This document shows, piece by piece, positions 1,839 through 29,412 of a stretch of DNA of 35,502 nt; positions within the stretch are counted from its first letter, which is position 1; each line of letters begins with the position of its first letter. The notes under the pieces were generated by a model. That model was not told where the DNA came from, ran no database searches, and saw only the letters and a program-made list of their open reading frames with translations. Source of the DNA: a virus; IMG/VR virus record IMGVR_UViG_3300020455_000043, positions 1-35,502 of that record; one strand, 5' to 3'. A program made the translations under genes and the position numbers.

Positions 1839-2855
1839 TTATGCTCTTTTCATACAAGTGGACTCTGCATAACTCTTCCACTTAGTAGCATTCATTTTCT
1901 TAAGGTCGGCAATTTTGAGTACCATTCTCAAACTCATCTCCCTTAGTTTGTTCTTGTTAGTATAGATGTAATCCATCAGATCCTTTTGTTCATCTTCACT
2001 GAACTTGTAAGTACTCAACATACCGTCAGCTACAATTTGTTTACATCTTAAAAACTTGTCTCGCATTGTATCCAATGTAAGATCCAAATAGTGACACCTG
2101 GACATAATCGCATCTAGGTGATCTTTTAGTTTACCACGTGTTCTTTCGAACTTTACGTTGGTAATAAAAATGATCGAACCTTTAAACTCGAAAGTGTCTG
2201 GAACACCATTGTTAGCAAGGGCTCTGGACTCTGACCTCCAGCTCAGTGTTCGCTTAGGGCTACTATCAAGTGCCGCCTTTAGCAAGTTCAAACTCAGTTC
2301 ATCATACAGTACACTATCACAGTCATCTAATACTAGTACACTGCCTGACGCACTATAATCATATAGCAACTGGTAAAGTCCGATAGGTGTCGCCGCACCT
2401 TTCTCAACTCCAAAACGTCTCAAACTATCCTGGCTCAACTTCTTCATAATGCCAGCTTCTTTGAGTACCTTCTCAACTCCAAACGATTTACCAACACCTG
2501 GAGGTCCAGTAACTACCATACCGCGGACGACCCCATCACATGAAGCATATGTCATGTCTTCTAGGATCTCAAATCGCTCCCTTAATCGTTCGATGATTTG
2601 ATCATCTGTTTCTACTTGGGCGGTTTGGGTAGAAACAACACTCTCTCCATCTTCTAACATTTCAAAGTCGCTTTTGTTAACAACTTTGATCCGAATGGAT
2701 CGATCAGGGAATCCAGTAACTGCACTGCCATCAACTGTAATGAAGTTACCGTTTTTACCTTCTTTGTATTCTTTTACTAAAGGAAACACTGCGTCCTTTA
2801 TTTCTATGTTACGATATGTACCGTTAACAATTTTTACGTCTGTCGCTGTCTGCAT
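1839..2855 (-). CDS. AAA+ ATPase, phage type
   Basis: 338 residues. Walker A TGPPGVGKS at 116-124, Walker B LVLDDCD at about 174-180, sensor-1 asparagine in FITN at 230-233, and an arginine-finger candidate in SRCHYLDL (R253). A helical lid follows and the C-terminus is basic. Such single-domain ATPases recur in marine T4-type phages; the partner or substrate is unknown. The N-terminal 100 residues match nothing I recognise and may be the partner-binding part. The start ATG has a textbook AAGGAG ribosome-binding site inside a leader shared almost exactly with the gene at 6663. It has its own sigma-70 promoter (2890-2917), and a triple-hairpin 3' UTR ends the transcript. It is not a gp44 clamp loader by overall layout. 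Confidence 0.8.
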   Translation of the reverse strand: MQTATDVKIVNGTYRNIEIKDAVFPLVKEYKEGKNGNFITVDGSAVTGFPDRSIRIKVVNKSDFEMLEDGESVVSTQTAQVETDDQIIERLRERFEILEDMTYASCDGVVRGMVVTGPPGVGKSFGVEKVLKEAGIMKKLSQDSLRRFGVEKGAATPIGLYQLLYDYSASGSVLVLDDCDSVLYDELSLNLLKAALDSSPKRTLSWRSESRALANNGVPDTFEFKGSIIFITNVKFERTRGKLKDHLDAIMSRCHYLDLTLDTMRDKFLRCKQIVADGMLSTYKFSEDEQKDLMDYIYTNKNKLREMSLRMVLKIADLKKMNATKWKSYAESTCMKRA

Positions 2856-2889
2856 TGGTTCTCACTCCTTTTTAACAACTTATATATAC

Positions 2890-2917
2890 ATAATAGCATC
2901 ACTACAGTATATGTCAA
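2890..2917 (-). promoter_or_regulatory. Sigma-70-type promoter of the AAA+ ATPase gene
   Basis: TTGACA, 16-bp spacer ending in TGC, then TATTAT on the minus strand. The -35 box includes the TGA stop (2914-2916) of the methyltransferase gene. The 26 nt ending at the -35 (2912-2937) are repeated exactly at 6720-6745. Confidence 0.75.
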
Positions 2918-3528
2918 CCTTTTTTGGTATCTTTTTTAACTATTTCCATATAATAAAGTTCATTTTCAAAAACTTCACTGGTGAATGCTCTAGTTATTTG
3001 AAGACCATTTTTTTCGGTCACGTCTTTAAATGTTTCTGGACTACTTCCCCAGATATTTTCCATAAGTATAATTTTTCCATTTGGTCTAAGATGATATTGT
3101 GCTTCTCTGAAAAATCTATTGTGTATGGACCAGTTTGTATCTTTGTATTTTCTAGGATCTGTATAATGTTTATTAAATGGGTCTATACAAAAGTGTGGCG
3201 GATTGCCAACAATCAAATCAAATTTTCCCCAACTTCTAGGTATTCTGTTGAAGCAATCTGTTAAGCAAAAATGCACATTTTTAAGATCATTATTTTTGGT
3301 TGTTTGATTTATACTATCTTCTGCAATACCGTACTTGTCAGCTAATAGTAACGAATCAATACCAATGTCAGCATCTAACAATCCAAATCCCCAAAATCCA
3401 GGACCGCTAAACATTTCCAAAACATCTTTTGGTCTTTGGTCTCCGAGAAACATTTTGGTCGCCGAGACAGCATCTTCAATTGAAGCACTGCCTCCACCAT
3501 CTAAATTTTCATTGTATGCTATTTGCAT
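2914..3528 (-). CDS. Class I SAM-dependent methyltransferase with NPPH motif
   Basis: 204 residues. A Rossmann motif I is visible as VLEMFSGPGFWGFGLL (about 36-51), and motif IV as DLIVGNPPHF (about 104-113). The NPP(Y/F/H) motif is typical of enzymes methylating a planar amide or amino nitrogen (N6-adenine in DNA or RNA, or glutamine in proteins, as in PrmC/HemK). The substrate cannot be read from sequence. There is no target-recognition domain of useful size, so a protein or RNA substrate is as likely as DNA. The start overlaps the previous stop as TAATG. The last residues (KKDTKKG) are encoded by the repeated block that also forms the upstream part of the next promoter, so the C-terminus may have been shaped by insertion of that cassette. 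Confidence 0.8.
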   Translation of the reverse strand: MQIAYNENLDGGGSASIEDAVSATKMFLGDQRPKDVLEMFSGPGFWGFGLLDADIGIDSLLLADKYGIAEDSINQTTKNNDLKNVHFCLTDCFNRIPRSWGKFDLIVGNPPHFCIDPFNKHYTDPRKYKDTNWSIHNRFFREAQYHLRPNGKIILMENIWGSSPETFKDVTEKNGLQITRAFTSEVFENELYYMEIVKKDTKKG

Positions 3529-4220
3529 TAAACTTGTTCAATTTTGACATAATTAAACACAGTTTCTTTACAATTAGAGAACTTGCTTATATCATGTGTT
3601 TTAACTTTACCAGTAAGCACCACATCTTTGCCTTCAATGATACCTTGTATATCTGGTTCACGATTAAAGAAAAACTTTACAATATTGTTTTCGCTAGTTA
3701 AGCAGGTTACCAAATGAATATTGTATTTGGCAATAAACTTAACATCTTTAATAAAAGCAGGAAACCGTAGACGCTCACCTATCTTACCAACAAACTCACT
3801 TGCTTTACGATGCTTATCAAAAAAGTCATCTAGTCCTTGACGTTTCTGTAGAACACGGAAACTGTTGGGCAAACTGGCAAGAACTGCAACTCCAAACTTT
3901 TCAACAGTTTCACCGCCAATGTTTTGAAGTACATTGCTTTCAAAGTCATTTATATTACCGCTAAGTTTTTTAGCAATAAGTTCTTGTTTAAATTCATCTA
4001 CAATTTGATCAGCTTGAGCAACTGTATCTTCACTGATTGGCATCATGTCAGTTGCACCTTCAAGCATATTAAGAATTGTAGTCTTATTATCATCAACACG
4101 TTTATCAGTTTCTTGATTATAGTAACCATAACCGCTTTTAATAAAGCCCTGTGCTTTATCAACTTCAATAGCTAATTCTAGGACTTGCCGTGTGTTGTAT
4201 TGTGTTTTTTGACGTGCCAT
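3528..4220 (-). CDS. Conserved phage protein, 230 aa, unknown function
   Basis: Not recognised. It begins MARQKTQYNTRQ after an AGAGGA ribosome-binding site. The first half is helical (residues 10-130), and the second half (about 150-230) is beta-rich with a segment reading GKDVVLTGKVKTHDISKF that could be a small OB- or SH3-like barrel. There are no membrane segments or catalytic motifs. Its promoter (4251-4278) follows the 40-aa membrane gene. Translational coupling (TAATG) with the methyltransferase downstream suggests a joint role, for example delivering the methyltransferase to a substrate, but this is speculation. Confidence 0.7.
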   Translation of the reverse strand: MARQKTQYNTRQVLELAIEVDKAQGFIKSGYGYYNQETDKRVDDNKTTILNMLEGATDMMPISEDTVAQADQIVDEFKQELIAKKLSGNINDFESNVLQNIGGETVEKFGVAVLASLPNSFRVLQKRQGLDDFFDKHRKASEFVGKIGERLRFPAFIKDVKFIAKYNIHLVTCLTSENNIVKFFFNREPDIQGIIEGKDVVLTGKVKTHDISKFSNCKETVFNYVKIEQV

Positions 4221-4250
4221 TTTCTTATCCTCTGTTCTACTTACTGTGTT

Positions 4251-4278
4251 ATATTAGCATATGTACGAAATACGTCAA
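4251..4278 (-). promoter_or_regulatory. Sigma-70-type promoter of the 230-aa gene
   Basis: TTGACG, 16-bp spacer ending TGC, TAATAT on the minus strand. It starts 1 nt past the TAG stop of the 40-aa gene. Confidence 0.65.
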
Positions 4279-4279
4279 C

Positions 4280-4402
4280 CTAAAAAATAAAGGTTAAAAT
4301 TGCAAAAACTAAAAATAAGATAAAAATTATGTTGAAAAGTTTAGCTAGTAAAGTAGCTGGTAAAACTAGCAAATACCAATATATGTTTTTAAGTGTTGTC
4401 AT
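4280..4402 (-). CDS. Tiny membrane protein, 40 aa
   Basis: An ATG at 4402 is preceded by GAGGA at good spacing and by a complete sigma-70 promoter (4431-4459). The 40-residue product is almost entirely hydrophobic: residues about 7-22 (IYWYLLVLPATLLAKL) and 24-40 (NIIFILFLVFAILTFIF) could each cross the membrane. Function is unknown. Tiny early membrane proteins in T4-type phages often act on host envelope or lysis timing, but no similarity is claimed. It stops with TAG next to the next promoter. The dedicated promoter and ribosome-binding site make it a convincing gene despite its size. Confidence 0.65.
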   Translation of the reverse strand: MTTLKNIYWYLLVLPATLLAKLFNIIFILFLVFAILTFIF

Positions 4403-4430
4403 TGCGTCCTCTTTTTTAGCTTATGTATAC

Positions 4431-4459
4431 ACTATAACATCAAGACGTCTTACTGTCAA
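4431..4459 (-). promoter_or_regulatory. Sigma-70-type promoter of the 40-aa membrane gene
   Basis: AAAAAAGGTTGACA, 17-bp spacer, TATAGT on the minus strand; the A-tract ahead of the -35 resembles an UP element. One of the best matches to the phage early consensus. Confidence 0.8.
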
Positions 4460-4471
4460 CCTTTTTTTTGC

Positions 4472-4529
4472 TATTGCAAATAATAGTAAGAATAATTTGC
4501 AATAAGAGTCTATGGAGAATGCGTAGACT
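4472..4529. repeat. Two inverted repeats upstream of an early promoter
   Basis: A perfect 10-bp inverted repeat (4472-4481/4495-4504, 13-nt spacer) lies just upstream of the promoter at 4431-4459. A 6-bp one (4507-4512/4524-4529) lies beyond it, between the stop of the 85-aa gene and the promoter. Neither has a T-run on the minus strand, so they are poor terminators. Stem-loop plus early promoter recalls the mobile PeSL cassettes known from T4-type phages. Confidence 0.5.
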
Positions 4530-4553
4530 GACAAAACCTAATTTGACAGTGAT

Positions 4554-4811
4554 TTATACCGAGAACAGGTCGCCTTGTCTCGTATAACCTTTAACAGTCT
4601 CCACAGTCATTATACCTTCACACCAGTTATGTGAGGCATCTTTAACATATGTAAATGACTTATCATAGTAAGGAATACAACCAACGATTTGCCCATGTTC
4701 ATAAAAACTACACTGTAAATACTCATCATCAACAAGATTAATTACACTTAATCTACCTGTTTCTTTGTTCTCAGTCTTGTTATACCAACTTGGTCCAAAA
4801 TCGTCTGCCAT
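4554..4811 (-). CDS. Hypothetical protein, 85 aa
   Basis: Not recognised. It starts MADDFGPSWYNKTENKETG after an AGGAGG-type ribosome-binding site (minus strand AGGAGGAATTTA). It is predicted beta-rich with several aromatic residues, two widely spaced Cys and one further Cys in HNWCEG, and a GQIVGCIPYYDKSF segment. It follows the 69-aa gene by 10 nt and is probably in the same transcript. No membrane segment or catalytic motif is visible. There is no terminator after it other than the two inverted repeats at 4472-4529. Confidence 0.6.
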   Translation of the reverse strand: MADDFGPSWYNKTENKETGRLSVINLVDDEYLQCSFYEHGQIVGCIPYYDKSFTYVKDASHNWCEGIMTVETVKGYTRQGDLFSV

Positions 4812-4821
4812 TAAATTCCTC

Positions 4822-5031
4822 CTATTCGCTAAAGTGTTTTTCGATCATTTCTAAACGATCGCTTGCCGCCGCCATTTTATCAAGTTCAGCAATGATTGCT
4901 TCGCAGACATCACTATGTTCACCAATACCTGCTGGCATGGCTCTATAGACTTCGATGTTTGCTTTATGTACTGCAATCTCGCCTTCTGCTTGCTTTCTAG
5001 CGGCTTCAATTAATGCATCTCCAACTTTCAT
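4822..5031 (-). CDS. Hypothetical helical protein, 69 aa
   Basis: Not recognised. The product is Ala- and Glu-rich and almost wholly helical (MKVGDALIEAARKQAEGEIA, then HKANIEVYRAM, then a C-terminal helix ELDKMAAASDRLEMIEKHF), consistent with a small helical bundle. It lies between tRNA-Thr and the 85-aa gene. A short hairpin (5050-5066) and an ATAAATA motif (5073-5079) sit in front of it, so late expression is possible. Confidence 0.6.
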   Translation of the reverse strand: MKVGDALIEAARKQAEGEIAVHKANIEVYRAMPAGIGEHSDVCEAIIAELDKMAAASDRLEMIEKHFSE

Positions 5032-5049
5032 TTAACATCCTATTGATTG

Positions 5050-5066
5050 GCTACCTTTCTGGTAGC
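5050..5066 (-). other. Short hairpin between tRNA-Thr and the 69-aa gene
   Basis: GCTACC and GGTAGC form a 6-bp stem with a 5-nt loop (AGAAA in minus-strand RNA). No T-run follows. It may serve processing of the tRNA-mRNA junction. Confidence 0.4.
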
Positions 5067-5078
5067 TATGGTTATTTA

Positions 5079-5154
<76 letters not shown>

Positions 5155-5166
5155 TCCATGACTTAT

Positions 5167-5406
5167 TTAATGACTGGTTATAAAAGGATCTAAAGGTCGT
5201 TCTTCTTGATCCGGATGCCAGTGAGTTACATCACCAGTTAGCCATCCAGTATCATTATAAAAGATACTCATACCTTCCCATTCATTACCTTCTTCGTCTA
5301 CATAAAGACCGTCATAAAAGCCTTTATGGGTACCTACGACATCAAAGAAATACCAACATTTCTCTCCTACCTTAGGTAATCTCTCATTTACATTTATCCA
5401 TTTCAT
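5167..5406 (-). CDS. DUF551-like protein, 79 aa
   Basis: The sequence runs MKWINVNERLPKVGEKC near the start and VTHWHPDQEERPLDP near the end, matching the DUF551 pattern (WI.V.ERLP ... VTHW.P) found in many phages and prophages; function is unknown. A longer start at 5418 is possible, but GGAG lies 7 nt before the ATG at 5406, so the shorter form is chosen. The gene is wedged between tRNA-Thr and tRNA-Leu, with only 12-14 nt on each side, and is presumably released from a mixed tRNA-mRNA transcript. Confidence 0.75.
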   Translation of the reverse strand: MKWINVNERLPKVGEKCWYFFDVVGTHKGFYDGLYVDEEGNEWEGMSIFYNDTGWLTGDVTHWHPDQEERPLDPFITSH

Positions 5407-5420
5407 ATATTTCTCCATTA

Positions 5421-5505
5421 TGGTGCTCGCACCTGGACTCGAACCAGGACGAACTATGTCGACAGATTTTAAGTCTGTTGTGTCTACCTATTCCACCATG
5501 CGAGC
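5421..5505 (-). tRNA. tRNA-Leu (anticodon UAA)
   Basis: 85 nt with a long variable arm, as expected for class II tRNA. The acceptor is GCTCGCA/TGCGAGC, the anticodon stem ACAGA/TCTGT with loop CTTAAAA (anticodon TAA), the T-loop TTCGAGT, and CCA is encoded. It reads UUA, a codon common in AT-rich phage genes. Confidence 0.93.
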
Positions 5506-5513
5506 TCCATAAT

Positions 5514-5591
5514 TGGCCCACCCTGCAGGACTCGAACCTGCGACCTACGGTTTAGAAGACCGTTGCTCTAATCCTGCTGAGCTAAGGGTGG
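5514..5591 (-). tRNA. tRNA-Arg (anticodon UCU)
   Basis: Acceptor CCACCCT/AGGGTGG with G discriminator and encoded CCA; anticodon stem ACGGT/ACCGT with loop CTTCTAA (anticodon TCT); T-arm GCAGG/CCTGC. It reads AGA, often rare in hosts but frequent here. Its 5' end directly abuts the stop codon of the methyltransferase gene. Confidence 0.92.
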
Positions 5592-6164
5592 TTATTTTCT
5601 TATATACCAACTTCCTGGCATAATTGTTAATATATTTTCTTCACCATACATTTTATTAACAGTATGGTATACATCTGCTGATGTAAGATAGTCGTGTCCG
5701 GCAATTACACCACCAAATTTTATTTTAGGATCCCAACTAATTAAATCCTCTTCAAATTTGGGATTGGTATGATCACCGTCAATGAATACAAAATCTAAAC
5801 TTTTATCTTCGAAGAATTTACTTGCTTCAGAACTATCACTGTTAATCATATTAACAAATTTATGATCTTTCAGACCAAACGGGCCACCTGTTTCTACTTG
5901 TGTTCCGTCTTTCATAAACTGTTTTGTTTTATTATCTACTGTATAAAACTCAATATCTTTTCCGCTAGCTTGGATTTGATCGCCCATAAAGCTAGCACTT
6001 TCTCCATGGTATGTTCCTATTTCTACAAACGTAGCACGGTATGGTTTTGTTTGAATTCGATTAATTTCATGTTGATACAATGGTTGATAGTCAAACCAGC
6101 CAAGGTCTGACTTATCTTTATTAAACGTTTTAAATTTTTCCTGCCAGGGAATATCGCTAACCAT
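5592..6164 (-). CDS. Class I methyltransferase of the CmcI/MTase_24 type
   Basis: 190 residues. Motif I FVEIGTYHGESASFMG lies at about 46-61. A second acidic strand (DIEFYTVDNKT) and the characteristic LDFVFIDGDHTNPKFEEDL (about 124-142) with GGVIAGHDYL follow. The FIDGDH signature is typical of small-molecule O-methyltransferases and of CmcI-like enzymes acting on glycans or lipids in surface-polysaccharide clusters. The substrate is unknown here. The gene lies between a structured non-coding stretch (6165-6273) and tRNA-Arg. No promoter is seen closer than the one at 6697-6725, so it is likely the second gene of that transcript. Confidence 0.8.
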   Translation of the reverse strand: MVSDIPWQEKFKTFNKDKSDLGWFDYQPLYQHEINRIQTKPYRATFVEIGTYHGESASFMGDQIQASGKDIEFYTVDNKTKQFMKDGTQVETGGPFGLKDHKFVNMINSDSSEASKFFEDKSLDFVFIDGDHTNPKFEEDLISWDPKIKFGGVIAGHDYLTSADVYHTVNKMYGEENILTIMPGSWYIRK

Positions 6165-6273
6165 TTCAAATCCTTATATTTGGCTTCTAGATCTCGGCAT
6201 GCAACTGTTTTAATCTAGTAACTTAGCCTACCCTTATGTGGTCGCACGGACCGCCTCTGTAGGTACCAAGTAA
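6165..6273 (-). ncRNA. Structured 109-nt stretch before the methyltransferase gene
   Basis: There is no ORF. In minus-strand RNA one can fold a closing helix UUGG/CCAA, an arm CCUAC/GUAGG capped by GGUC-CGUGC-GACC, and an arm CUAGAU/AUCUAG with a 20-nt loop containing palindromic GCAUGC. An AAGGAUU ribosome-binding site of the downstream gene follows the last arm. The layout (multi-branch fold right before a start codon) is riboswitch-like, but it does not match a class I can name. Confidence 0.35.
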
Positions 6274-6663
6274 TTATTTTTGAACGTAAGGTGTATTCCA
6301 GTTACCAACGTTCATGCTAATATAATAAGCAGTGTCAAAGTAATCAATCATTGAATCACTGTTGTCATACCAGCCTTTGTTCTTGTGATAGCCTTCTCCT
6401 TTGATAGGAGCAGTTTTTATAATTTTGTGAACTGCATCAAAGAAATCTTTGTGTTCACCATACATATGTGTATGATAATGATTGATCTGAGCATAACCAT
6501 CATCACCAGCTCTAAAACAATCACTAAAGTCTGTAGGTCCACTTTTTATAGTAACATCTACTGCTGAATAATCTCTTTTTCTAACACCAAATTTAAACTT
6601 TGGAAAAGTTGCTTTAAGTTCTTCTCTGATTGCTTTGACGTCTTCTGCGTTAATAAATGCCAT
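6274..6663 (-). CDS. LPD29-like domain protein, 129 aa
   Basis: The N-terminal part (INAEDVKAIREELKATFPKF, then KFGVRKRDYSAVDVTIKSGP) resembles the LPD29 domain of phage polyvalent proteins: a helix-strand-strand unit found alone or fused in many mobile elements, with no known activity. A HYHTHMYGEH cluster (about 83-92) is rich in His and could bind metal. The gene follows its own promoter (6697-6725) and a leader almost identical to that of the AAA+ ATPase gene, so the two should be co-regulated. The domain assignment is by pattern memory and moderately sure. Confidence 0.65.
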   Translation of the reverse strand: MAFINAEDVKAIREELKATFPKFKFGVRKRDYSAVDVTIKSGPTDFSDCFRAGDDGYAQINHYHTHMYGEHKDFFDAVHKIIKTAPIKGEGYHKNKGWYDNSDSMIDYFDTAYYISMNVGNWNTPYVQK

Positions 6664-6696
6664 TTGGTTCTCACTCCTTTTTCTAACTATACATAT

Positions 6697-6725
6697 ACTA
6701 TAGCACCATGAGCTCTTATTGTCAA
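6697..6725 (-). promoter_or_regulatory. Sigma-70-type promoter of the LPD29-like gene
   Basis: AAAAAAGGTTGACA, 17-bp spacer ending GGTGC, TATAGT on the minus strand, followed by a leader with AAGGAGTGAGAACC. Upstream and leader blocks are shared with the promoter at 2890-2917; core and leader are shared with the one at 25995-26023. Confidence 0.85.
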
Positions 6726-6744
6726 CCTTTTTTGGTATCTTTTT

Positions 6745-7956
6745 TTACAACCATCCTTCATATTCAGGAATAACATCAGTTATTTTTTGTTTTCTAATTG
6801 GGTCATATGTGTTAATTTTTGTTTTAAATGCTTCCCAATTTGTGTATTCGTTACCCGGGTTAACTGTTTTTATATGATTGTAGATACCGTCCCAGGGCCT
6901 TTCATAACAAAGATTTTGCCAATTTGGTTGCCATTCTGCATCTATTTTGTTTAGCAGTTGTTTCTTTAGTTCCTGAGGCATGTTAGTTACACAAGAACCA
7001 CTGTCATAAACAATATTCAACCAAAGCATTACTTCACCTTTAAATTCACGTTCGTAATATTCAAAACTACGCATCAAATCCCATACACTATAATTACTAA
7101 CACTGTAGCTGATTTTAGGTCTAAAGCCATGATCCCAAACAAAACGTTTTAGTGTATCTTCAAACACACTCCATTTGCCTGGATATCTTGCATATTCAAA
7201 CGTAGGTCCAACTCCATCAGCACTGAATAAAAAATGTACTAATTTAAAATGGGGCCATATATTTTTTAATGCATGTTTTGGATAAACACTACCATTTGTA
7301 GCATAGTTCAATGAAATATTTTGTGCATATCCTTTTTCAACAATTTTTTCTAAAAATTTAAATTGTTGTTTAATTAAGAAAGGTTCTCCTCCATACAAAT
7401 CAATTTGATCAATATGAGGCAAAAACATTTCTAATGTTTTCCAATATTCTTCACTTTCATACCATTTGAAGTTTATATTATCTTTTTTAAAAACGTCTGT
7501 AAATCCTGCTTGTCGCATATCGTCTACCCAACGACTACTACTCCAAACATTGCAAATTCTACAAGCAAGGTTACATAGATTGCCCAATTTTAAGTCTAGA
7601 TATCTGTGTGTAAATCTATTTTGATCAATCATCAATCCTTGCTCAGCATACTTAAGATTTTCTCTCATACGTCTTGTTACATTACCATCAGCTTCTTCTT
7701 TATAACATTCTTCACAACCTCTAATAGGTTTGTCATCAAGTGCCCGTTGCCGCATTTCAACTGCGTCTTTGCTGTTTACAATGTCATTGATATTGTGTGT
7801 GGACACATTAAAAGGTGAACCATTTTCGTCTTTATAAACAGTCCTACTCACACAACAAGGTGCAACATGTCCGTATGTTTTGATTTCATAATGAAGGAAA
7901 GGTAAAGCACAAAAATGTTTAGTTTGAGGCTTTTTTACATCTTTATCTGTTTGCAT
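6745..7956 (-). CDS. Radical SAM protein, twitch/SPASM type
   Basis: 403 residues from the ATG at 7956; an ATG-less extension into the upstream gene is not used. The radical-SAM cluster motif CNLACRIC is at 128-135 (Cys128, 132, 135), followed by YGGEPFL for SAM binding. Extra cysteines before the core (FCALPF at 16, APCCVSR at 34-35, GCEECY at 81-84) fit an auxiliary Fe-S cluster of the twitch/SPASM kind placed N-terminally. Such proteins occur in marine phages; those in bacteria modify peptides or small molecules. No precursor peptide gene is evident next to it. The 361-aa gene ends 16 nt upstream, so the two are probably co-translated and may work together. Substrate unknown. Confidence 0.85.
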   Translation of the reverse strand: MQTDKDVKKPQTKHFCALPFLHYEIKTYGHVAPCCVSRTVYKDENGSPFNVSTHNINDIVNSKDAVEMRQRALDDKPIRGCEECYKEEADGNVTRRMRENLKYAEQGLMIDQNRFTHRYLDLKLGNLCNLACRICNVWSSSRWVDDMRQAGFTDVFKKDNINFKWYESEEYWKTLEMFLPHIDQIDLYGGEPFLIKQQFKFLEKIVEKGYAQNISLNYATNGSVYPKHALKNIWPHFKLVHFLFSADGVGPTFEYARYPGKWSVFEDTLKRFVWDHGFRPKISYSVSNYSVWDLMRSFEYYEREFKGEVMLWLNIVYDSGSCVTNMPQELKKQLLNKIDAEWQPNWQNLCYERPWDGIYNHIKTVNPGNEYTNWEAFKTKINTYDPIRKQKITDVIPEYEGWL

Positions 7957-7972
7957 GTTAATATTTAACAGT

Positions 7973-9058
7973 CTAAAATAAGTTGCGAGAAAACTTATAT
8001 TTTTTCTGAAAAGATTCTTGATATTGATCAATCCAAGATTGACCAAATATCTTACTCGCTATTGTATTTGACTGTTCATCGAGAAGTGTAATTTTATACA
8101 AGTCACTGTAAGGTTGTATATCATCATGAATATCGACTACAGCCTTATCACCGAAGTTTGTTTTATCCATTTTTGCTAACACACAATGTCCTAAAGCATT
8201 TGTCTTATCATTAATATCAACATTATTAGTTGTACACCACTGTTTATAATCTTCCCAATCTACATGCGGGTAACTGTTGAAAACCACATCAAATTCTCCT
8301 GACAGGAATTTGTTTGGACTTAACTGGTCCATTGGAATATTGCTGTCATTTGAAGTGTAAGTTTGTAGAATTGTTTTTCCAGTCTGTGGATAATGCAAGA
8401 CAACATCTCCAAATTCTCTATCTTCCATTTTAAATTCATCGTAGTCGCCATCATCTATATCCAATAGGTATTTTGCTTCTGGTCTTATACATACTACTAA
8501 ACCACTTTGTGGATAATACTTTTCTCCCCAAGACTCATACTTGTCTGATTTATCTCCAGGATTAAGATGTCCTTCTATTTCATGACATAGAAGATTTAGT
8601 TGCCAAATACTATTAACTATTCCTTGCATTTTTTCACCTGGCATATATTGTTGCATCCAAGTTGTTTCATTATTTTTGTTTTCTAAGTCTAAACTTAATA
8701 ATTCAAAATGCCTATGTATTTCATTTAGTTGTGGTTGATCAACTGTATTGTGGTCAAAATGCATATTAATTGTATAATCAAATCCATCTATACTTGTAAA
8801 AATGTTATCCAAATATTCAATATGCCAATTTAACTCTTTACACAACCACTCCTTTGTTCTTGAATGTGGAGTTAGGTCATAGTCCCAACCGTGATTTATA
8901 AAATCTTTTTGTATCCATGAATCATTGTTGTTTAAAAAATCTACATGTAATTTTTCAGCCCATTTTTGAACAAATTTATTTGGTTGAATATTAAAGTACA
9001 ATTCTAGTAATTCATCAGTTGCTAGATTACGCATGGTCAAATTTAATTTACTATACAC
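7973..9058 (-). CDS. Conserved unknown protein, 361 aa, partner of the radical SAM gene
   Basis: No family is recognised with certainty. A GTG at 9058 overlaps the rpiB stop (TAGTG) and has AGGA 8 nt upstream; an ATG at 9034 is the alternative. The protein is rich in Asp, Asn, Trp and aromatic residues. Histidine-rich patches occur in the middle (MHFDHN, EIHRHFE, CHEIEGHLNPG) and a later EFGDVVLHYPQTGKT segment follows an acidic LLDIDDGDYDEF. This pattern could be a double-stranded beta-helix metal enzyme (2-oxoglutarate oxygenase-like), but a clear HxD...H...R set cannot be assigned, so this remains a guess. It is tightly linked to rpiB before it and the radical SAM gene after it. Confidence 0.6.
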   Translation of the reverse strand: MYSKLNLTMRNLATDELLELYFNIQPNKFVQKWAEKLHVDFLNNNDSWIQKDFINHGWDYDLTPHSRTKEWLCKELNWHIEYLDNIFTSIDGFDYTINMHFDHNTVDQPQLNEIHRHFELLSLDLENKNNETTWMQQYMPGEKMQGIVNSIWQLNLLCHEIEGHLNPGDKSDKYESWGEKYYPQSGLVVCIRPEAKYLLDIDDGDYDEFKMEDREFGDVVLHYPQTGKTILQTYTSNDSNIPMDQLSPNKFLSGEFDVVFNSYPHVDWEDYKQWCTTNNVDINDKTNALGHCVLAKMDKTNFGDKAVVDIHDDIQPYSDLYKITLLDEQSNTIASKIFGQSWIDQYQESFQKKYKFSRNLF

Positions 9059-9480
9059 TAAAATTTTCCTATTCTTTTTTCGTGTCTCCCACCTTCAAAT
9101 TCTGTAGTAAGAAATGCATCTACTATGTTCGTTATCCATGCATGGTCTGTGACTCTAGCACCCAAACACAATACATTTGCATTATTATGTTTCCTAGTTA
9201 GAACGGCAGTTTGAGTATCTTTACAAAGTCCGGCGCGAATCTTTGGATTTCTATTCGCCGCCATACTCATGCCAATTCCTGTGCCACAAACAAGGATACC
9301 AAAATCTGCACCGCCATCTGCTACAAGTTCACATACGTCTTTAGCATAGTCAGGATAATCACAACTCTCTTCGCTATCACACCCCCAATCTCTAACATTG
9401 TGTCCTTGTTCTAACAACCATTCACTGATTGCTTCTTTTACTTTGTAACCTCCGTGGTCACTTGCTACTGTTACTATCAT
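9058..9480 (-). CDS. rpiB: Ribose-5-phosphate isomerase B (RpiB/LacAB family)
   Basis: 140 residues, full length for the family. RpiB interconverts ribose 5-phosphate and ribulose 5-phosphate in the non-oxidative pentose phosphate pathway. Visible landmarks: ASDHGGY at 6-12 (substrate-binding Asp8-His9), the catalytic cysteine in ILVCGTGIGMSMAANR (Cys65), KHNNANVL (His98) and GGRHEKRI near the C-terminus. All key residues of an active enzyme seem to be present. It starts with an ATGA overlap on uvsY and runs into the next gene by TAGTG, so it is translated with the recombination genes. An auxiliary metabolic gene supplying ribose for nucleotide synthesis is the natural reading. Confidence 0.9.
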   Translation of the reverse strand: MIVTVASDHGGYKVKEAISEWLLEQGHNVRDWGCDSEESCDYPDYAKDVCELVADGGADFGILVCGTGIGMSMAANRNPKIRAGLCKDTQTAVLTRKHNNANVLCLGARVTDHAWITNIVDAFLTTEFEGGRHEKRIGKF

Positions 9481-9932: not shown

Positions 9933-10187
9933 TTACCAATCATCATCTGAATCAGAGTCGTAATCATCATAAACTTCACTATCATAATAGTTGTCTCTGA
10001 GTACTCTGTCAAGGGTTGAATCATTCCCAAACCATTCATCGCATACTTCACTCAAGTCACAGATATTTTCATTTATAACTGCTAGAAACTTTTCGCATGC
10101 CAATTCTTTGTCTTTGGGATTTATATATGTTTTAAGAGATAGCCACATATCAATGTATGTGGTTATTTCCTCATCACTCATTTTCAT
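9933..10187 (-). CDS. Small acidic protein between uvsX and uvsY, 84 aa
   Basis: Not recognised. The start is placed at the ATG at 10187, which has AGGAAG 9 nt upstream; ATG at 10181 is also possible, and both overlap the end of uvsX. The first part is helical (MSDEEITTYIDMWLSLKTYI), and a strongly acidic tail closes it (YDDYDSDSDDDW). Acidic tails of this kind in phage replication proteins often mimic DNA or bind partners, as in the C-terminus of gp32. Since gp32 here lacks a long acidic tail, this protein could supply that interaction, but that is a guess from position and charge only. Confidence 0.7.
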   Translation of the reverse strand: MKMSDEEITTYIDMWLSLKTYINPKDKELACEKFLAVINENICDLSEVCDEWFGNDSTLDRVLRDNYYDSEVYDDYDSDSDDDW

Positions 10188-11283
10188 TAATAGGTTCTTC
10201 CTCAAGTGTTTCTAGTACTTCTGGTTCCTGGATATTTAGTTCAGGAAGGTCTTTTTGCCCCCATTCGGTCATAATAGTATCCAAGCAACCGTCTGTATTA
10301 GATTCCCATGCTTTCCTAAATTGTGTGTTTACTTCACCAGTAACTTGACTCTTATATTCTAAACGATTACCAGTTTTCTTAAGAAGTTCTAATTTCTCAC
10401 ACAAATCAACAAATCCACTGTATGGATTCATGCCTGTTTCATAAGGAATTTTGATCTGTACACTTTCGAAAGGTTTAGCAAAACGTGTTTTCATTACTTT
10501 ACACGCCGCCCTAATACCACGAATATCAGTAACTTTGTTACCGTCTTCGTCTTCTTTGAGTTTTAATTTACGCATAGCAACAACAATACTTGATGCATAG
10601 ATAAAGCCTTGTCCACCTGATATTTTATCATCAGGGTCAAACATATCTTGCGAAGCATATGTGTGGTTAGTTGCTACTAGTCCTACGTTGTAGTCACCAA
10701 ACATGTTTACACAGTTTCTTACAAGTGCAGTAAGTGCCTTGGGCTTACGACCTAAGTCACCTTTCATATCACCTTTTTGAAACTGATCAATGTCAGTGGG
10801 TGTAAGCATCATACCCAAACTGTCAATTACAAACAGTACTTTAGGTCGATCCTCTTCTTCTTTGTCAGCATAGTTAGCTTTGTAGTCTTTCATAAATTCA
10901 CTGATAACTTTAGCAACTTCATCAATCATTGCTACGTTTAGTTTTAACAATGAATTTTCACTAGTATCTACATCTAATGCTTTGAGCCATTGTTCATCTA
11001 ATGCGTTTTCGCTGTCAATCAATACACAAAAGATACCTTGCTTTTGTGCTTCTCTAATTAGGTTACCACTGCAAATAAAACTTTTACCTGCACCTGATTC
11101 TCCTGCAAATACTGTTACTTTGCCAAGAGGTACACCTTTATTAAAGTCACCACTAATTAGTTTGTTTAGTGTATAATTACCTGTAGAGATCCATGTGTCG
11201 GGGTCTCTAAATCCGCTACTGAGTCCAGGTACACTCTTTGTAATACTTTTGCGGAATTTACTTACATCAAAAGGTTTTGCCAT
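10174..11283 (-). CDS. uvsX: UvsX recombinase (RecA-like)
   Basis: 369 residues (T4: 391). UvsX forms filaments on single-stranded DNA and drives strand exchange for recombination-dependent replication. Walker A GESGAGKS lies at about 61-68, Walker B VLFVIDSLG near 147-155, and a loop region with TNHTYASQDMFDPDDKISGG resembles RecA L2 and its flanks. The acidic C-terminus (PEVLETLEEEPINENE) matches the T4 protein. A TTG at 11295 would extend it by four residues, but GGAG is positioned for the ATG at 11283. It lies 58 nt after gp32, with a GGCG/CGCC hairpin between them and no separate promoter seen, so it is likely read from the gp32 promoter. Confidence 0.95.
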   Translation of the reverse strand: MAKPFDVSKFRKSITKSVPGLSSGFRDPDTWISTGNYTLNKLISGDFNKGVPLGKVTVFAGESGAGKSFICSGNLIREAQKQGIFCVLIDSENALDEQWLKALDVDTSENSLLKLNVAMIDEVAKVISEFMKDYKANYADKEEEDRPKVLFVIDSLGMMLTPTDIDQFQKGDMKGDLGRKPKALTALVRNCVNMFGDYNVGLVATNHTYASQDMFDPDDKISGGQGFIYASSIVVAMRKLKLKEDEDGNKVTDIRGIRAACKVMKTRFAKPFESVQIKIPYETGMNPYSGFVDLCEKLELLKKTGNRLEYKSQVTGEVNTQFRKAWESNTDGCLDTIMTEWGQKDLPELNIQEPEVLETLEEEPINENE

Positions 11284-11341
11284 AGTTTTCTCCAAAAAGC
11301 CAGAGTAGGCGACCGTAGCCGCCCACTACATTGTTTATCTA

Positions 11342-12473: not shown

Positions 12474-12502
12474 AGTATATGTTATCTAAAGTTGGATGTC
12501 AA
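12474..12502 (-). promoter_or_regulatory. Sigma-70-type promoter of the gp32-uvsX-uvsY-rpiB operon
   Basis: TTGACA, 17-bp spacer, TATACT on the minus strand. The -35 overlaps the TGA stop of the 454-aa gene (12499-12501). Leader of about 80 nt to the gp32 ATG. Confidence 0.8.
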
Positions 12503-13863
12503 CTAAAAAGTTTGTCAAAATCATAATTTTTAAAATTACTTTCGAATGTTTCTTCCCAATCTTCTCTAACACTTGTATCTTCACTTGCTGTAGCTGTGAG
12601 TTTTTTGAATAAGGAGTTAAGTGCTTGTACTCCTGATATCATAATGGCTCGGTCTTTGACACGTTCCATTTCATCGCTCATTCTAGTCAGCAACTGACTT
12701 AACTGATCCTCACCTTTCTTTGCATAGTCAATGGAGTTACCTAAGTATTCCATAACTACTGCAATCTGATTTTCCTTAGGCATGTTTCCAAAACTGCTCA
12801 AGTTCATTGGATTCTCAGGATCAGATTTTACATTGATACCCTTGCGTAATGATACTGTATCCATTTTTTCAATAGTATCTGCAAGACTATCCATGGTCTC
12901 TTTTGCAAAGTCATCAGCTTCTTTGATTGCTTTCATCTCTTTAACTAATGCATTTACATACGGTAACGCTTCATCTAATGATTCATCAAATGTGCGTACT
13001 GTAAACTGATTACGAAGTTTGTTTCTATCTGTTTCGTTGATCTTTACTTCTTTTGATTCAAACTTCTCTTTTGTTTCATTGTAGCATTTACAACCTTTTA
13101 GTTTGTTAATGCCTTCTCTTAAACTGTTAATTCTGTTACTTACTGCTTCTACAATATCAGTAGTATCTTCGTTTACCAAGCCATTACGAAGACTGTATTT
13201 TTTGAACTCTTTTAGTTTTTTAAGTTCAATACATTGCTCACTAATATGTCTACCAAATTCATCATATGGATTACCGCCTTCTTTAACGTGACGTAACATA
13301 GCTCTGCCGCCTGCTAAGTTGTTGGTTTCCATTTTGTAACGTTCGCCGTCTGCACTTTCAATATAGATAGCACTAATATTTCTGCTTCTACTGCCACGCG
13401 ATTCTTCGTTAACTGGTTTTGTGTGTTTAATAATTAGTTTAGCATTTTCTAACTGCTGGTAACTGCTCTTGCTACTACCATATGCAGGACTAATGCCTTC
13501 TTGTACATCTTGTTTCATATCTCTAACCTTTTGTGCTTGGTAATCTTGGTCCTTGGGTGTAATTGATTTGGTAAAACTTTTTAATGTATATTCAATTACA
13601 TTTTGATTAGCTAGATTTTTTAATAATGCTAGTGTATCTTTAAATTCTTTAATATCTGTATTTTGATTAACACTTACACGAATTTCTCTTTTACTATCAG
13701 TCTCATCTAGATTAACCATACTACCTAAATCTGGAATATAAAAACGCCTAGCGGCTTGTGGATCAACTGTATTCTCACCTTCGTCGGTAAAAATTTTAAT
13801 TTTGTATCCATTACCTTTAAGAATTTTAAAGATATTTTCTGCTATAGTTTCGCCACTAATCAT
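12499..13863 (-). CDS. Conserved unknown protein, 454 aa
   Basis: Not recognised. It begins MISGETIAENIFKILKGNGY after AAAGGA and a late promoter (13881-13887). The N-terminal 100 residues look like an alpha/beta unit (KIKIFTDEGENTVDP, then IRVSVNQNTDIKEFKD). A central region holds NISAIYIESADGERYKM and NLAGGRAMLRHVKEGG. The C-terminal half is long helices (KLKEFKKYSLRNG, then RINSLREGINKLKGCKCY), indicating a rod or coiled-coil bundle. With a late promoter and a place directly after gp17, a virion or packaging-related role is likely. A CKC pair at about residue 260 is the only notable cysteine cluster. Confidence 0.7.
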   Translation of the reverse strand: MISGETIAENIFKILKGNGYKIKIFTDEGENTVDPQAARRFYIPDLGSMVNLDETDSKREIRVSVNQNTDIKEFKDTLALLKNLANQNVIEYTLKSFTKSITPKDQDYQAQKVRDMKQDVQEGISPAYGSSKSSYQQLENAKLIIKHTKPVNEESRGSRSRNISAIYIESADGERYKMETNNLAGGRAMLRHVKEGGNPYDEFGRHISEQCIELKKLKEFKKYSLRNGLVNEDTTDIVEAVSNRINSLREGINKLKGCKCYNETKEKFESKEVKINETDRNKLRNQFTVRTFDESLDEALPYVNALVKEMKAIKEADDFAKETMDSLADTIEKMDTVSLRKGINVKSDPENPMNLSSFGNMPKENQIAVVMEYLGNSIDYAKKGEDQLSQLLTRMSDEMERVKDRAIMISGVQALNSLFKKLTATASEDTSVREDWEETFESNFKNYDFDKLFS

Positions 13864-25730: not shown

Positions 25731-25964
25731 TTAAGCAAATAAAGGTTTCATTGTTGAGTAAACTTTATTATAGGCGTTTACTTCATATATCCAACTCTCA
25801 AAGAACGCATCATCATCTTCGTACATGGAGTCATCGGAACAATGTTTTTCCCACATAGCATCGACATGTTCCATGCCATCAATTAAGCTATTGTTGATAG
25901 TAAGTACACCTTTTGCTTCTTCAAAGGTCATTTCCATCTTATGAAAGTTTGGGATTCTAAACAT
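25731..25964 (-). CDS. Hypothetical early protein, 77 aa
   Basis: Not recognised. It starts MFRIPNFHKMEMTFEEAKGV after AAGGAGTG. Acidic (a DDSMYEDDDAFFESW stretch at about 44-58) and mostly helical. No membrane segment. It has its own strong sigma-70 promoter (25995-26023) with the same core and leader sequence as the LPD29-like gene, so it belongs to the early set. Its transcript continues into the structured stretch at 25528-25730. Confidence 0.65.
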   Translation of the reverse strand: MFRIPNFHKMEMTFEEAKGVLTINNSLIDGMEHVDAMWEKHCSDDSMYEDDDAFFESWIYEVNAYNKVYSTMKPLFA

Positions 25965-25994
25965 CTATCACTCCTTGTTTCTAACTATACATAC

Positions 25995-26023
25995 ACTATA
26001 GCACCAAGATGTCATACTGTCAA
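25995..26023 (-). promoter_or_regulatory. Sigma-70-type promoter of the 77-aa gene
   Basis: AAAAAAGGTTGACA, 17-bp spacer ending GGTGC, TATAGT on the minus strand. It starts 6 nt past the stop of the dNMP kinase gene. From GGTGC through TATAGT and the following AGTTAGAAA it is nearly identical to the promoter at 6697-6725. Confidence 0.85.
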
Positions 26024-26029
26024 CCTTTT

Positions 26030-26620
26030 TTATAACATTTTTTGTAATTTTTTTAATAAATCTTCCAAACTACCATCATTTTGTATGATTTGTTCAAATG
26101 ATTCGTCTTTGTCTATCCAAGCCCATTCACTAGCATGTACATCTATGGGTTCTACACCATTATCACGTTTATCCATAAACCAACCGGGCAATTCACCTCT
26201 GCGTACTTGCCATACTTGACCTTGTACACTTTGTATCATTTTAACTTCGTTTGGAAAACGTACATCAGGAATAACCCAATTTTTATCTGGATCTTCTAAT
26301 ATTTTTTGTTTTACTAGGCTTACCCATATACCATCAAAGAATCCGTTACGCATACAATCAGTACCAAATAACTGAAGCACAAGACGAGGAGTAACTTCTC
26401 TGCCTGTTTCGTTTGACCAAAACACATCAGTTTTTTCTCTCCATATCCTACTGCGATCTGTGTCGCCTTCTAACATATCTCTATCCCAACCAAAAACACT
26501 AGCTACGCCATCTTTAAGTTTGTCAGCGAAACTTAGCTTTTCAAAGTTGTGATTTTCTACCAAAATATCAGCAACGGTGCCTTTACCACTACCGATTAAT
26601 CCACATATTCCTATAATCAT
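26030..26620 (-). CDS. 1: Deoxynucleoside monophosphate kinase (T4 gp1 family)
   Basis: 196 residues. It phosphorylates dNMPs to dNDPs for phage DNA synthesis. P-loop GLIGSGKGT at about 7-15; LSFADKLKDGVASVFG, DRDMLEGDTDRSRIWR and ELPGWF are typical of the gp1-like family; WVIPDVRFPNE marks the lid/NMP region. T4 gp1 has 241 residues, and the marine forms are shorter, as here. The ATG lies 6 nt after the -10 box of its promoter and there is no ribosome-binding site, so its message would be leaderless. It is one of the few metabolic genes among the virion genes. Confidence 0.88.
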   Translation of the reverse strand: MIIGICGLIGSGKGTVADILVENHNFEKLSFADKLKDGVASVFGWDRDMLEGDTDRSRIWREKTDVFWSNETGREVTPRLVLQLFGTDCMRNGFFDGIWVSLVKQKILEDPDKNWVIPDVRFPNEVKMIQSVQGQVWQVRRGELPGWFMDKRDNGVEPIDVHASEWAWIDKDESFEQIIQNDGSLEDLLKKLQKML

Positions 26621-28098: not shown

Positions 28099-28105
28099 TA
28101 TTTAT
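28099..28105 (-). promoter_or_regulatory. T4-type late promoter before the metallopeptidase gene
   Basis: AAATAAATAC on the minus strand, including the TAA stop of the 411-aa gene (28102-28104); 5 nt to the ATG. Confidence 0.7.
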
Positions 28106-29337
28106 TTGAAGGCTTTGAGAATAATAGTGTCTGCATTAAATCTGCCATTCATTTTAGTTTCAGTTGTTTTCAAATATCCAAACTGTGCGTTTAGTTTGTG
28201 TTTGGTAACTTTTTTCCAGTTAGGCAACACTTCACTTGGCTTACGAACGGTCTTTTGTACACTACGAGTTTCACTAAAGTGTTGTAGTGTGGTGCCTTTT
28301 ACTTTAAACTGTGCATGGTCTTCTGCATAGTATATGCCCAACTTACGATTTTTTGTGTTAAACACAACTACCGCAGTTGCATCAATAATCTCGCTTGGAT
28401 TAACACTAGCTATTCCAAAATCTCCGTCACTAGCTTTGAATTTAAGTTTCTTAACTAGCTCTTGAGCACTTTTTACTTTAGGTTTACGAACTGCACGATT
28501 TTGTTTTTGTTCAGCTTTCATAATTTCAATAGCATCAAACAATCGCTTGTAAAAGTCTGTAAGCTCTTTAATTTGTGGCTTACTGTATGTTTCGTAACCT
28601 TCAGCAAGTTGTTGTTGCATTTCGTCACGTTTGCTAGCAGTTGGCAGATTGTTTAGTTCTTGTAGTTCTTCATAACTACCACTATACCAGTTTGTTACAA
28701 AACGTAGGTGTCCTAGATTAATTTGTTTCTTCTTGAACAATTTTAAAGGCACTTTGTCTTTTAGTGGATTAGCTTTGCTGTCAGTTAGCCAATCGTCAAT
28801 CCATTGATCCAAATCTTCAGTTTTATCTACAGCCGCTTCTTCTAAACGTTCTTGTATGCTAGGAACATAAACATTTTTTGTTGTAGCTTTTTTCTCTTCT
28901 ACAATTAGTTTGCCAGCTTCTATTAGTTCTGTAACTTTAGGTTTAATATAATCGGTCATAGGTCTAATGTCACCACTAGTACCAGGACAAGACTGCCAAT
29001 GCTCTTGTTCTTTTTCGTTGTAGTCAGGACATCCGTCTAACAACATACGGCAGTATATACCTACTAGTCCTTCGTATTTTGCGGCTTTCTTTGCATTTGA
29101 TATATCTGATTTTGTATACCCGTTTTCTTTCATCCAAGTAAACATATGCTCAATGTTTTCATTATGCTTATAGTTCATATACCAAAAATCATTGTTGTGT
29201 CGTTTTAAAGCATGAAACTTATTACCATCTAAATTTTCCCAGCCTTCAAAGCCAGGCGCCTGTAAACCACGTTTTCTGATTCGTTTTAGTGGTACTTTCT
29301 TTTTAGATTTTTTAACTAAACTTCTAGGTGTAGCCAT
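28102..29337 (-). CDS. Conserved unknown protein, 411 aa
   Basis: Not recognised beyond being of a type seen in marine T4-type phages. The start is placed at the ATG at 29337, with AGAGAGG ahead; the longer form (29370) would start at or before the transcription start. Basic N-terminus (SLVKKSKKKVPLKRIRKRG) suggests nucleic-acid binding. Then GWENLDGNKFHALKRHNNDF, a helical middle, and a beta-rich C-terminus from about 300 (DATAVVVFNTKNRKLGIYYA, FGYLKTTETKMNG). Cysteines at about 95, 103 and 117 do not form a clear zinc motif. Promoter of the early type at 29372-29399. Confidence 0.7.
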   Translation of the reverse strand: MATPRSLVKKSKKKVPLKRIRKRGLQAPGFEGWENLDGNKFHALKRHNNDFWYMNYKHNENIEHMFTWMKENGYTKSDISNAKKAAKYEGLVGIYCRMLLDGCPDYNEKEQEHWQSCPGTSGDIRPMTDYIKPKVTELIEAGKLIVEEKKATTKNVYVPSIQERLEEAAVDKTEDLDQWIDDWLTDSKANPLKDKVPLKLFKKKQINLGHLRFVTNWYSGSYEELQELNNLPTASKRDEMQQQLAEGYETYSKPQIKELTDFYKRLFDAIEIMKAEQKQNRAVRKPKVKSAQELVKKLKFKASDGDFGIASVNPSEIIDATAVVVFNTKNRKLGIYYAEDHAQFKVKGTTLQHFSETRSVQKTVRKPSEVLPNWKKVTKHKLNAQFGYLKTTETKMNGRFNADTIILKAFK

Positions 29338-29371
29338 AATTGTTGCCTCTCTGTATGTGCCTTTACACATT

Positions 29372-29399
29372 AATTTAGCATCTTTTGTAAATTTGTCAA
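29372..29399 (-). promoter_or_regulatory. Sigma-70-type promoter of the 411-aa gene
   Basis: AAAGGTTGACA, 16-bp spacer ending TGC, TAAATT (weak -10) on the minus strand. It lies back to back with the late promoter at 29413-29420, 13 bp apart. Confidence 0.6.
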
Positions 29400-29412
29400 C
29401 CTTTAAGGTATC

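What the first reader, a model, noticed from the sequence alone, without database searches (positions are those of the whole stretch)
2856..6745. Duplicated promoter-leader cassette (2.86-2.94 kb, 6.66-6.75 kb, partly 25.97-26.03 kb)
The promoters at 2890-2917 and 6697-6725 share an identical 26-nt block upstream (2912-2937 and 6720-6745) and a 19-nt leader block with AAGGAGTGAGAACCAA, while the spacer between diverges. The promoter at 25995-26023 shares the core and leader with the second. At the first site the shared block encodes the last residues of the methyltransferase (KKDTKKG), so the cassette seems to have replaced the gene's natural end. T4-type phages are known to carry mobile early-promoter cassettes (PeSL elements); this may be a marine equivalent.
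Basis: partly seen in the sequence, partly recalled or inferred. Interest (0 to 1): 0.6.

Follow-up and report, generated by a model that had tools for sequence, protein, structure and literature searches.

The report
Promoter family with gene-insertion slots
This marine phage carries several near-copies of one strong early-gene promoter; the promoters mostly stay with the gene they drive, and extra genes are swapped in and out just upstream of them, much as at T4-phage "PeSL" elements but without the stem-loop.

Summary
The repeat is real. The units are strong sigma70-like promoters: A-tracts, TTGACA, extended -10, leader with Shine-Dalgarno site. In relatives, close copies stand before about 30 gene families. 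Leaders of unrelated genes share up to 31 identical nt, so the copies are homologous and not merely consensus matches.

At site 1 the promoter already lies between the two flanking genes in about 75 relatives; the methyltransferase is the insert. At site 2 a radical SAM gene is inserted the same way. The shared 26-nt block tracks the upstream (inserted) gene, while spacer and leader track the downstream gene, so the "cassette" is a joint of two histories meeting at the -35 box. Promoter replacement also happens, but less often.

PeSL-like in role, but the stem-loop is missing at the three reported sites, and the phage is nearer to PA5oct-like jumbo phages than to T4.

The parts
2853..2940 (-). 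Site 1 promoter unit: A-tract block 2918-2937, -35 TTGACA 2912-2917, 16-nt spacer without dyad, -10 TATTAT 2890-2895, leader with GGAG, ATG at 2855
1839..2855 (-). Downstream gene of site 1 (family F1, phrog_1250, AAA ATPase fold)
2914..3528 (-). Inserted methyltransferase gene (cargo) between 3528-4220 and the resident promoter
3528..4220 (-). Left neighbour (family F0) that abuts the promoter directly in methyltransferase-free relatives
4408..4470 (-).
4474..4502 (.). Hairpin TTGCAAATTATT/AATAATTTGCAA just upstream of the fourth copy; of the four copies folded, the only one with a stem-loop (z -2.7)
6274..6663 (-). Downstream gene of site 2 (family F2, LPD29 domain)
6664..6748 (-). Site 2 promoter unit: block 6726-6745, -35 6720-6725, dyad 6708-6717, -10 6697-6702, leader 6664-6696
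6745..7956 (-). Inserted radical SAM gene (cargo; likely ATG at 7956) between the 361-aa gene and the site 2 promoter
7973..9058 (-). 361-aa gene that abuts the promoter directly in L093 and L284; itself an insert between the RpiB gene and the promoter
9058..9480 (-). RpiB (family g26) gene, the left border of the site 2 slot; abuts the promoter in the empty form
10174..11295 (-). UvsX-like recombinase, a possible agent for recombination at short repeats (inferred)
25972..26033 (-). Site 3 promoter unit: -35 26018-26023, dyad 26006-26015, -10 25995-26000; drives ORF 25731-25964; A-tracts run into the 3' end of the dNMP kinase gene 26030-26620
29346..29409 (-). Fifth copy (no dyad), promoter of gene 28102-29337

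Best explanation
The repeats are members of one family of strong early promoters read by the host sigma70-type polymerase. Each has A-tracts upstream, often in helical phase (an UP-element or curved-DNA feature), TTGACA, a 16-17 nt spacer that in most copies holds an AWGANNTCWT dyad, an extended -10 and a leader with a Shine-Dalgarno site. A promoter is mostly inherited with the gene it drives. The junction just upstream of it is a slot where accessory genes are added to the end of the preceding gene group; the inserted gene brings its own 3' flank up to the A-tract/-35, where the shared promoter sequence gives recombination a short homology. This is why sites 1 and 2 share the 26-nt upstream block but not the spacer. 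Less often the promoter-leader itself is replaced by another copy. Shown: homology of the copies, the empty sites, linkage of the block to the upstream gene, phasing, dyad. Inferred: early timing and sigma70 use, homology-driven recombination (for example by the phage's UvsX-like protein), and any regulator for the dyad.
For: Empty sites: the F0-to-F1 gap is 63-85 nt in about 75 loci, 676 nt with the methyltransferase, 622-635 nt with a 2OG-oxygenase-like gene, 1220 nt with both. RpiB-to-F2 is 74-86 nt empty, about 1157 nt with the 361-aa gene, 2398 nt in the window with the radical SAM gene added directly at the promoter, about 1285 nt with PurA. Chimeric joint: downstream of TTGACA the window's site 1 is identical over 41 nt to L010, which lacks the methyltransferase; upstream of the A-tract it is unrelated. 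Block presence depends on the upstream gene (entropy 0.22, permuted mean 0.51, minimum 0.34) and not on the downstream gene (0.60 against 0.60). Nearest promoter has the same downstream family in 159 of 176 cases. Gene trees: upstream gene changes 15 and 11 times, leader type 9 and 5. Shared leaders between unrelated downstream genes: 536 pairs with 14 or more identical nt, none in shuffles, up to 31 nt. A-tract phasing at 10.5 nt: vector strength 0.71 against 0.07 shuffled and 0.08 at gene ends without promoter. Dyad in 24 of 25 families outside six exceptions.
Against: Promoter-containing junctions are not significantly richer in insertions than other junctions (11 of 18 against 51 of 129, p 0.12). 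The insertion of the radical SAM gene is seen in this contig only, so misassembly at a short repeat is not fully excluded. Rows sharing an upstream gene are also related, which inflates the block test. No expression data; left junctions show no shared sequence by eye.
Confidence: 0.72

Rival explanations
1. One reading: a mobile promoter cassette (PeSL-like) inserts itself between genes and replaces gene ends.
For: Leader types are shared among unrelated downstream genes far beyond chance; 17 of 176 promoters have their nearest relative before a different gene; leader type changes 9 times on the F2 tree, for example L232 with leader A nested in a leader-B clade at 96/90; some orthologous genes carry the promoter in some contigs and not in others (F0, F26).
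Against: At sites 1 and 2 the promoter is older than the inserted gene; most promoters follow their downstream gene; the two ends of the 'cassette' have different histories; no terminal repeats or encoded mobility gene seen.
Confidence: 0.2
2. Simple sharing of a sigma70 consensus: independent promoters that look alike because the same polymerase reads them.
For: TTGACA, TGNTATA and A-tracts are generic sigma70 features (general knowledge; present here).
Against: Leaders outside the polymerase contacts share up to 31 identical nt between unrelated genes, none as long in shuffles; the profile gives no hit at 15 bits in reversed sequence; the dyad is present in 95% of spacers against 4% in shuffles, in promoters outside six families.
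Confidence: 0.05
3. Intragenomic gene conversion keeps the promoter copies of one phage alike.
For: In L275 several promoters are each other's best match.
Against: Promoters of different genes in the same locus are hardly more alike than those in different loci (mean 0.674 against 0.655).
Confidence: 0.05

Closest known systems
PeSL elements of T4-type phages (Arbiol et al. 2010; Comeau et al. 2014; described second-hand in PMC4503421)
   Same: Short repeated early-promoter sequences in intergenic regions of a large myovirus-like phage, at junctions where genes are shuffled.
   Different: No stem-loop at the three reported sites; the unit is not one piece (upstream block follows the upstream gene, leader follows the downstream gene); different phage group; A-tract phasing and spacer dyad. 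The two primary papers were not held in the library, so the comparison rests on the secondary source and general knowledge.
UP elements and phased A-tracts of strong bacterial and phage promoters (general knowledge)
   Same: A-tracts centred about 5, 17 and 28 nt upstream of the -35 box, in helical phase.
   Different: Here the array often lies in the coding 3' end of the upstream gene.
Morons (genes inserted in phage genomes with their own promoter and terminator; general knowledge)
   Same: Single accessory genes inserted between conserved genes.
   Different: The inserts seen here follow the preceding gene with little or no gap and end directly before a resident promoter; no promoter of their own was found by the profile.

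Membership tests
PeSL | Contains an early-type promoter | tested here: met
   TTGACA with 16-17 nt spacing and extended -10; 4 matches against 0.02 expected. Early timing itself is not testable here.
PeSL | Contains a stem-loop or terminator next to the promoter | tested here: not met
   Sites 1-3 do not fold better than shuffles (z -0.6, -1.5, -0.4 upstream; leaders z 0.06 to 0.84); family mean z -0.2, 10% below -2. Only copy 4 and a few relatives have one.
PeSL | Many homologous copies in intergenic regions of one genome | tested here: met
   Five copies in 35.5 kb; copies before about 30 gene families in relatives.
PeSL | Associated with gene shuffling between related phages | tested here: met
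   Different upstream genes before the same promoter and gene; but the rate against other junctions is not significant.
PeSL | Found in T4-type phages | tested here: not met
   Virion protein and phrog_1250 gene are nearest to PA5oct-like phages; tail sheath and UvsX-like proteins show a distant link only.
sigma70 promoter with UP element | A-tracts upstream of -35 in helical phase | tested here: met
   Period 10.5 nt, vector strength 0.71 against 0.07 in shuffles.
sigma70 promoter with UP element | Transcription start and stimulation by alpha-CTD | not testable with these tools
   Needs RNA or in vitro transcription.

The most novel reading that the evidence does not exclude
A promoter-directed gene-capture system: accessory genes carry a common 3' tag (A6-GAYRYM before A5GG) that targets them, by recombination or by a site-recognising protein that binds the spacer dyad, to the upstream edge of early promoters, so that each phage lineage loads new genes at fixed slots without breaking existing transcription units.
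Probability: 0.12. Interest if true: 0.8.

Novelty: new variant of a known kind. Interest (0 to 1): 0.5.

Why it matters
It gives a concrete, countable picture of how large marine phages gain accessory genes (methyltransferase, PurA, RpiB, radical SAM): at slots beside resident promoters, with sequence-level joints. It shows PeSL-like shuffling outside T4-type phages and without a stem-loop, and it defines a promoter class with a spacer dyad that predicts an unknown regulator.

Tried and rejected
Stem-loop as part of the cassette: rejected by folding. Replacement of the methyltransferase end: rejected by empty sites and homologue alignment. Lysine-rich C-termini imposed on upstream genes by the A-tracts: trend only, p 0.17. 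Promoter junctions as insertion hotspots: p 0.12. A first neighbour-switch test gave more upstream-neighbour changes across promoters (family mean 0.53 against 0.35) but on 10 families only, and no difference when anchored on the upstream gene; not relied on. Gene conversion within a genome: no clear signal. Host mimicry of the dyad promoter: exact pattern in only two contigs of 84,980 species genomes, both phage-like contigs binned in one MAG. PeSL primary papers not held; two paper searches failed on term rules and one found nothing. One script failed on a wrong spacer length and was corrected.

Full report
What is there. A strict pattern finds four copies against 0.02 expected; the extra one is at 4429-4467. 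A profile built from 77 promoters of related contigs finds five strong copies in the window, adding 29346-29409, and 318 hits in 2.08 Mb of related loci against none in the reversed sequence. The window is a 35.5-kb virus fragment. Its virion protein at 12499-13863 and its phrog_1250 gene are nearest to PA5oct-like jumbo phages, so 'T4-type' holds only in a wide sense.

What the copies are. Each unit has A-tracts, GGTTGACA, a 16-17 nt spacer, an extended -10 (TGNTATNNT) and a leader with a Shine-Dalgarno site. In relatives such promoters precede about 30 gene families. Leaders of genes with no detectable similarity share up to 31 identical nt; 536 pairs share 14 nt or more and no shuffled pair does. 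The copies are therefore homologous. First, A-tracts of four or more lie about 5, 17, 28 and 38 nt upstream of the -35 box; without the first, their period is 10.5 nt with vector strength 0.71, against 0.07 in shuffles and 0.08 at gene ends without promoter. They often lie in the coding end of the upstream gene. Second, a dyad AWGANNTCWT sits at a fixed place in the spacer of 32 of 32 F2 and 25 of 25 F3 promoters and none of 43 F1 promoters; outside six families without it, 24 of 25 families have it, and 95% of their spacers hold GANNTC against 4% in shuffles.

Site 1. In about 75 loci gene F0 (3528-4220) is followed at 63-85 nt by gene F1 (1839-2855), the gap being the promoter. In the window and its nearest relatives the methyltransferase fills this place (676 nt), in others a 2OG-oxygenase-like gene (622-635 nt), in L015 both (1220 nt). 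L010, without the methyltransferase, has the same sequence as the window from TTGACA onwards for 41 nt, whereas the sequence upstream of the A-tract is unrelated. So the promoter was there first and the gene came in. That the methyltransferase stops inside the -35 box is not special: 35 of 202 promoters, with 10 upstream families, have this, among them F0 itself in methyltransferase-free relatives. The cyanophage homologue ends at about the same place.

Site 2. RpiB (9058-9480) abuts the promoter of F2 (6274-6663) in many relatives (74-86 nt). L093 and L284 have a 361-aa gene in between, ending directly at the promoter. The window has that gene and, between its stop codon and the promoter, the radical SAM gene. 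Other relatives have PurA there. Both inserted genes of the window thus end in the same block, AAAAAAGATACCAAAAAAGG, which the matching sites without them lack. Across promoters the block goes with the upstream gene and not with the downstream gene. In the virus collection the exact 26-mer was found in two contigs only, both at the methyltransferase.

Movement of the promoter itself. The nearest promoter has the same downstream family in 159 of 176 cases, so inheritance with the gene dominates. But 17 exceptions, at least 9 and 5 changes of leader type on the F2 and F3 trees, and genes with the promoter in some contigs only show that promoters are also replaced. Upstream genes change more often on the same trees (15 and 11). 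Promoter junctions are not significantly richer in insertions than other junctions (11 of 18 against 51 of 129, p 0.12); where an insertion is seen there, it mostly lies on the upstream side.

Reading. The most likely account is a family of strong early promoters that act as fixed points, with accessory genes loaded on their upstream side, by recombination over the short shared stretch around the -35 box; the phage has a UvsX-like recombinase, but its part in this is inferred. In role this resembles the PeSL elements of T4-type phages (secondary description in PMC4503421). The stem-loop that gives PeSLs their name was tested and is absent at the three reported sites, so the elements are not filed as PeSLs. 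The spacer dyad could be an operator for an unknown factor; nothing here tests that. The extended pattern occurs in no bacterial contig of the genome collection except two phage-like contigs binned in a MAG.

Noticed in passing
   Followed up: yes
spacers of most promoter copies, e.g. window 4442-4451, 6708-6717, 26006-26015: Dyad AWGANNTCWT between -35 and -10, arms fixed and centre variable, in one class of these promoters only; possible operator.
   Followed up: partly
L289 and L290 (MAG MED685): Contigs of a gammaproteobacterial MAG that encode this phage group's genes and promoters; phage contigs appear to have been binned with the bacterium.
   Followed up: partly
L092, L102, L280, L091 and others, upstream of family F2: Phage-encoded PurA (adenylosuccinate synthetase) and RpiB genes next to the promoter: metabolic genes swapped at one slot.
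   Followed up: partly
window 5079-5591: Three tRNA genes (Thr, Leu, Arg) in a cluster beside the shuffled region.
   Followed up: no
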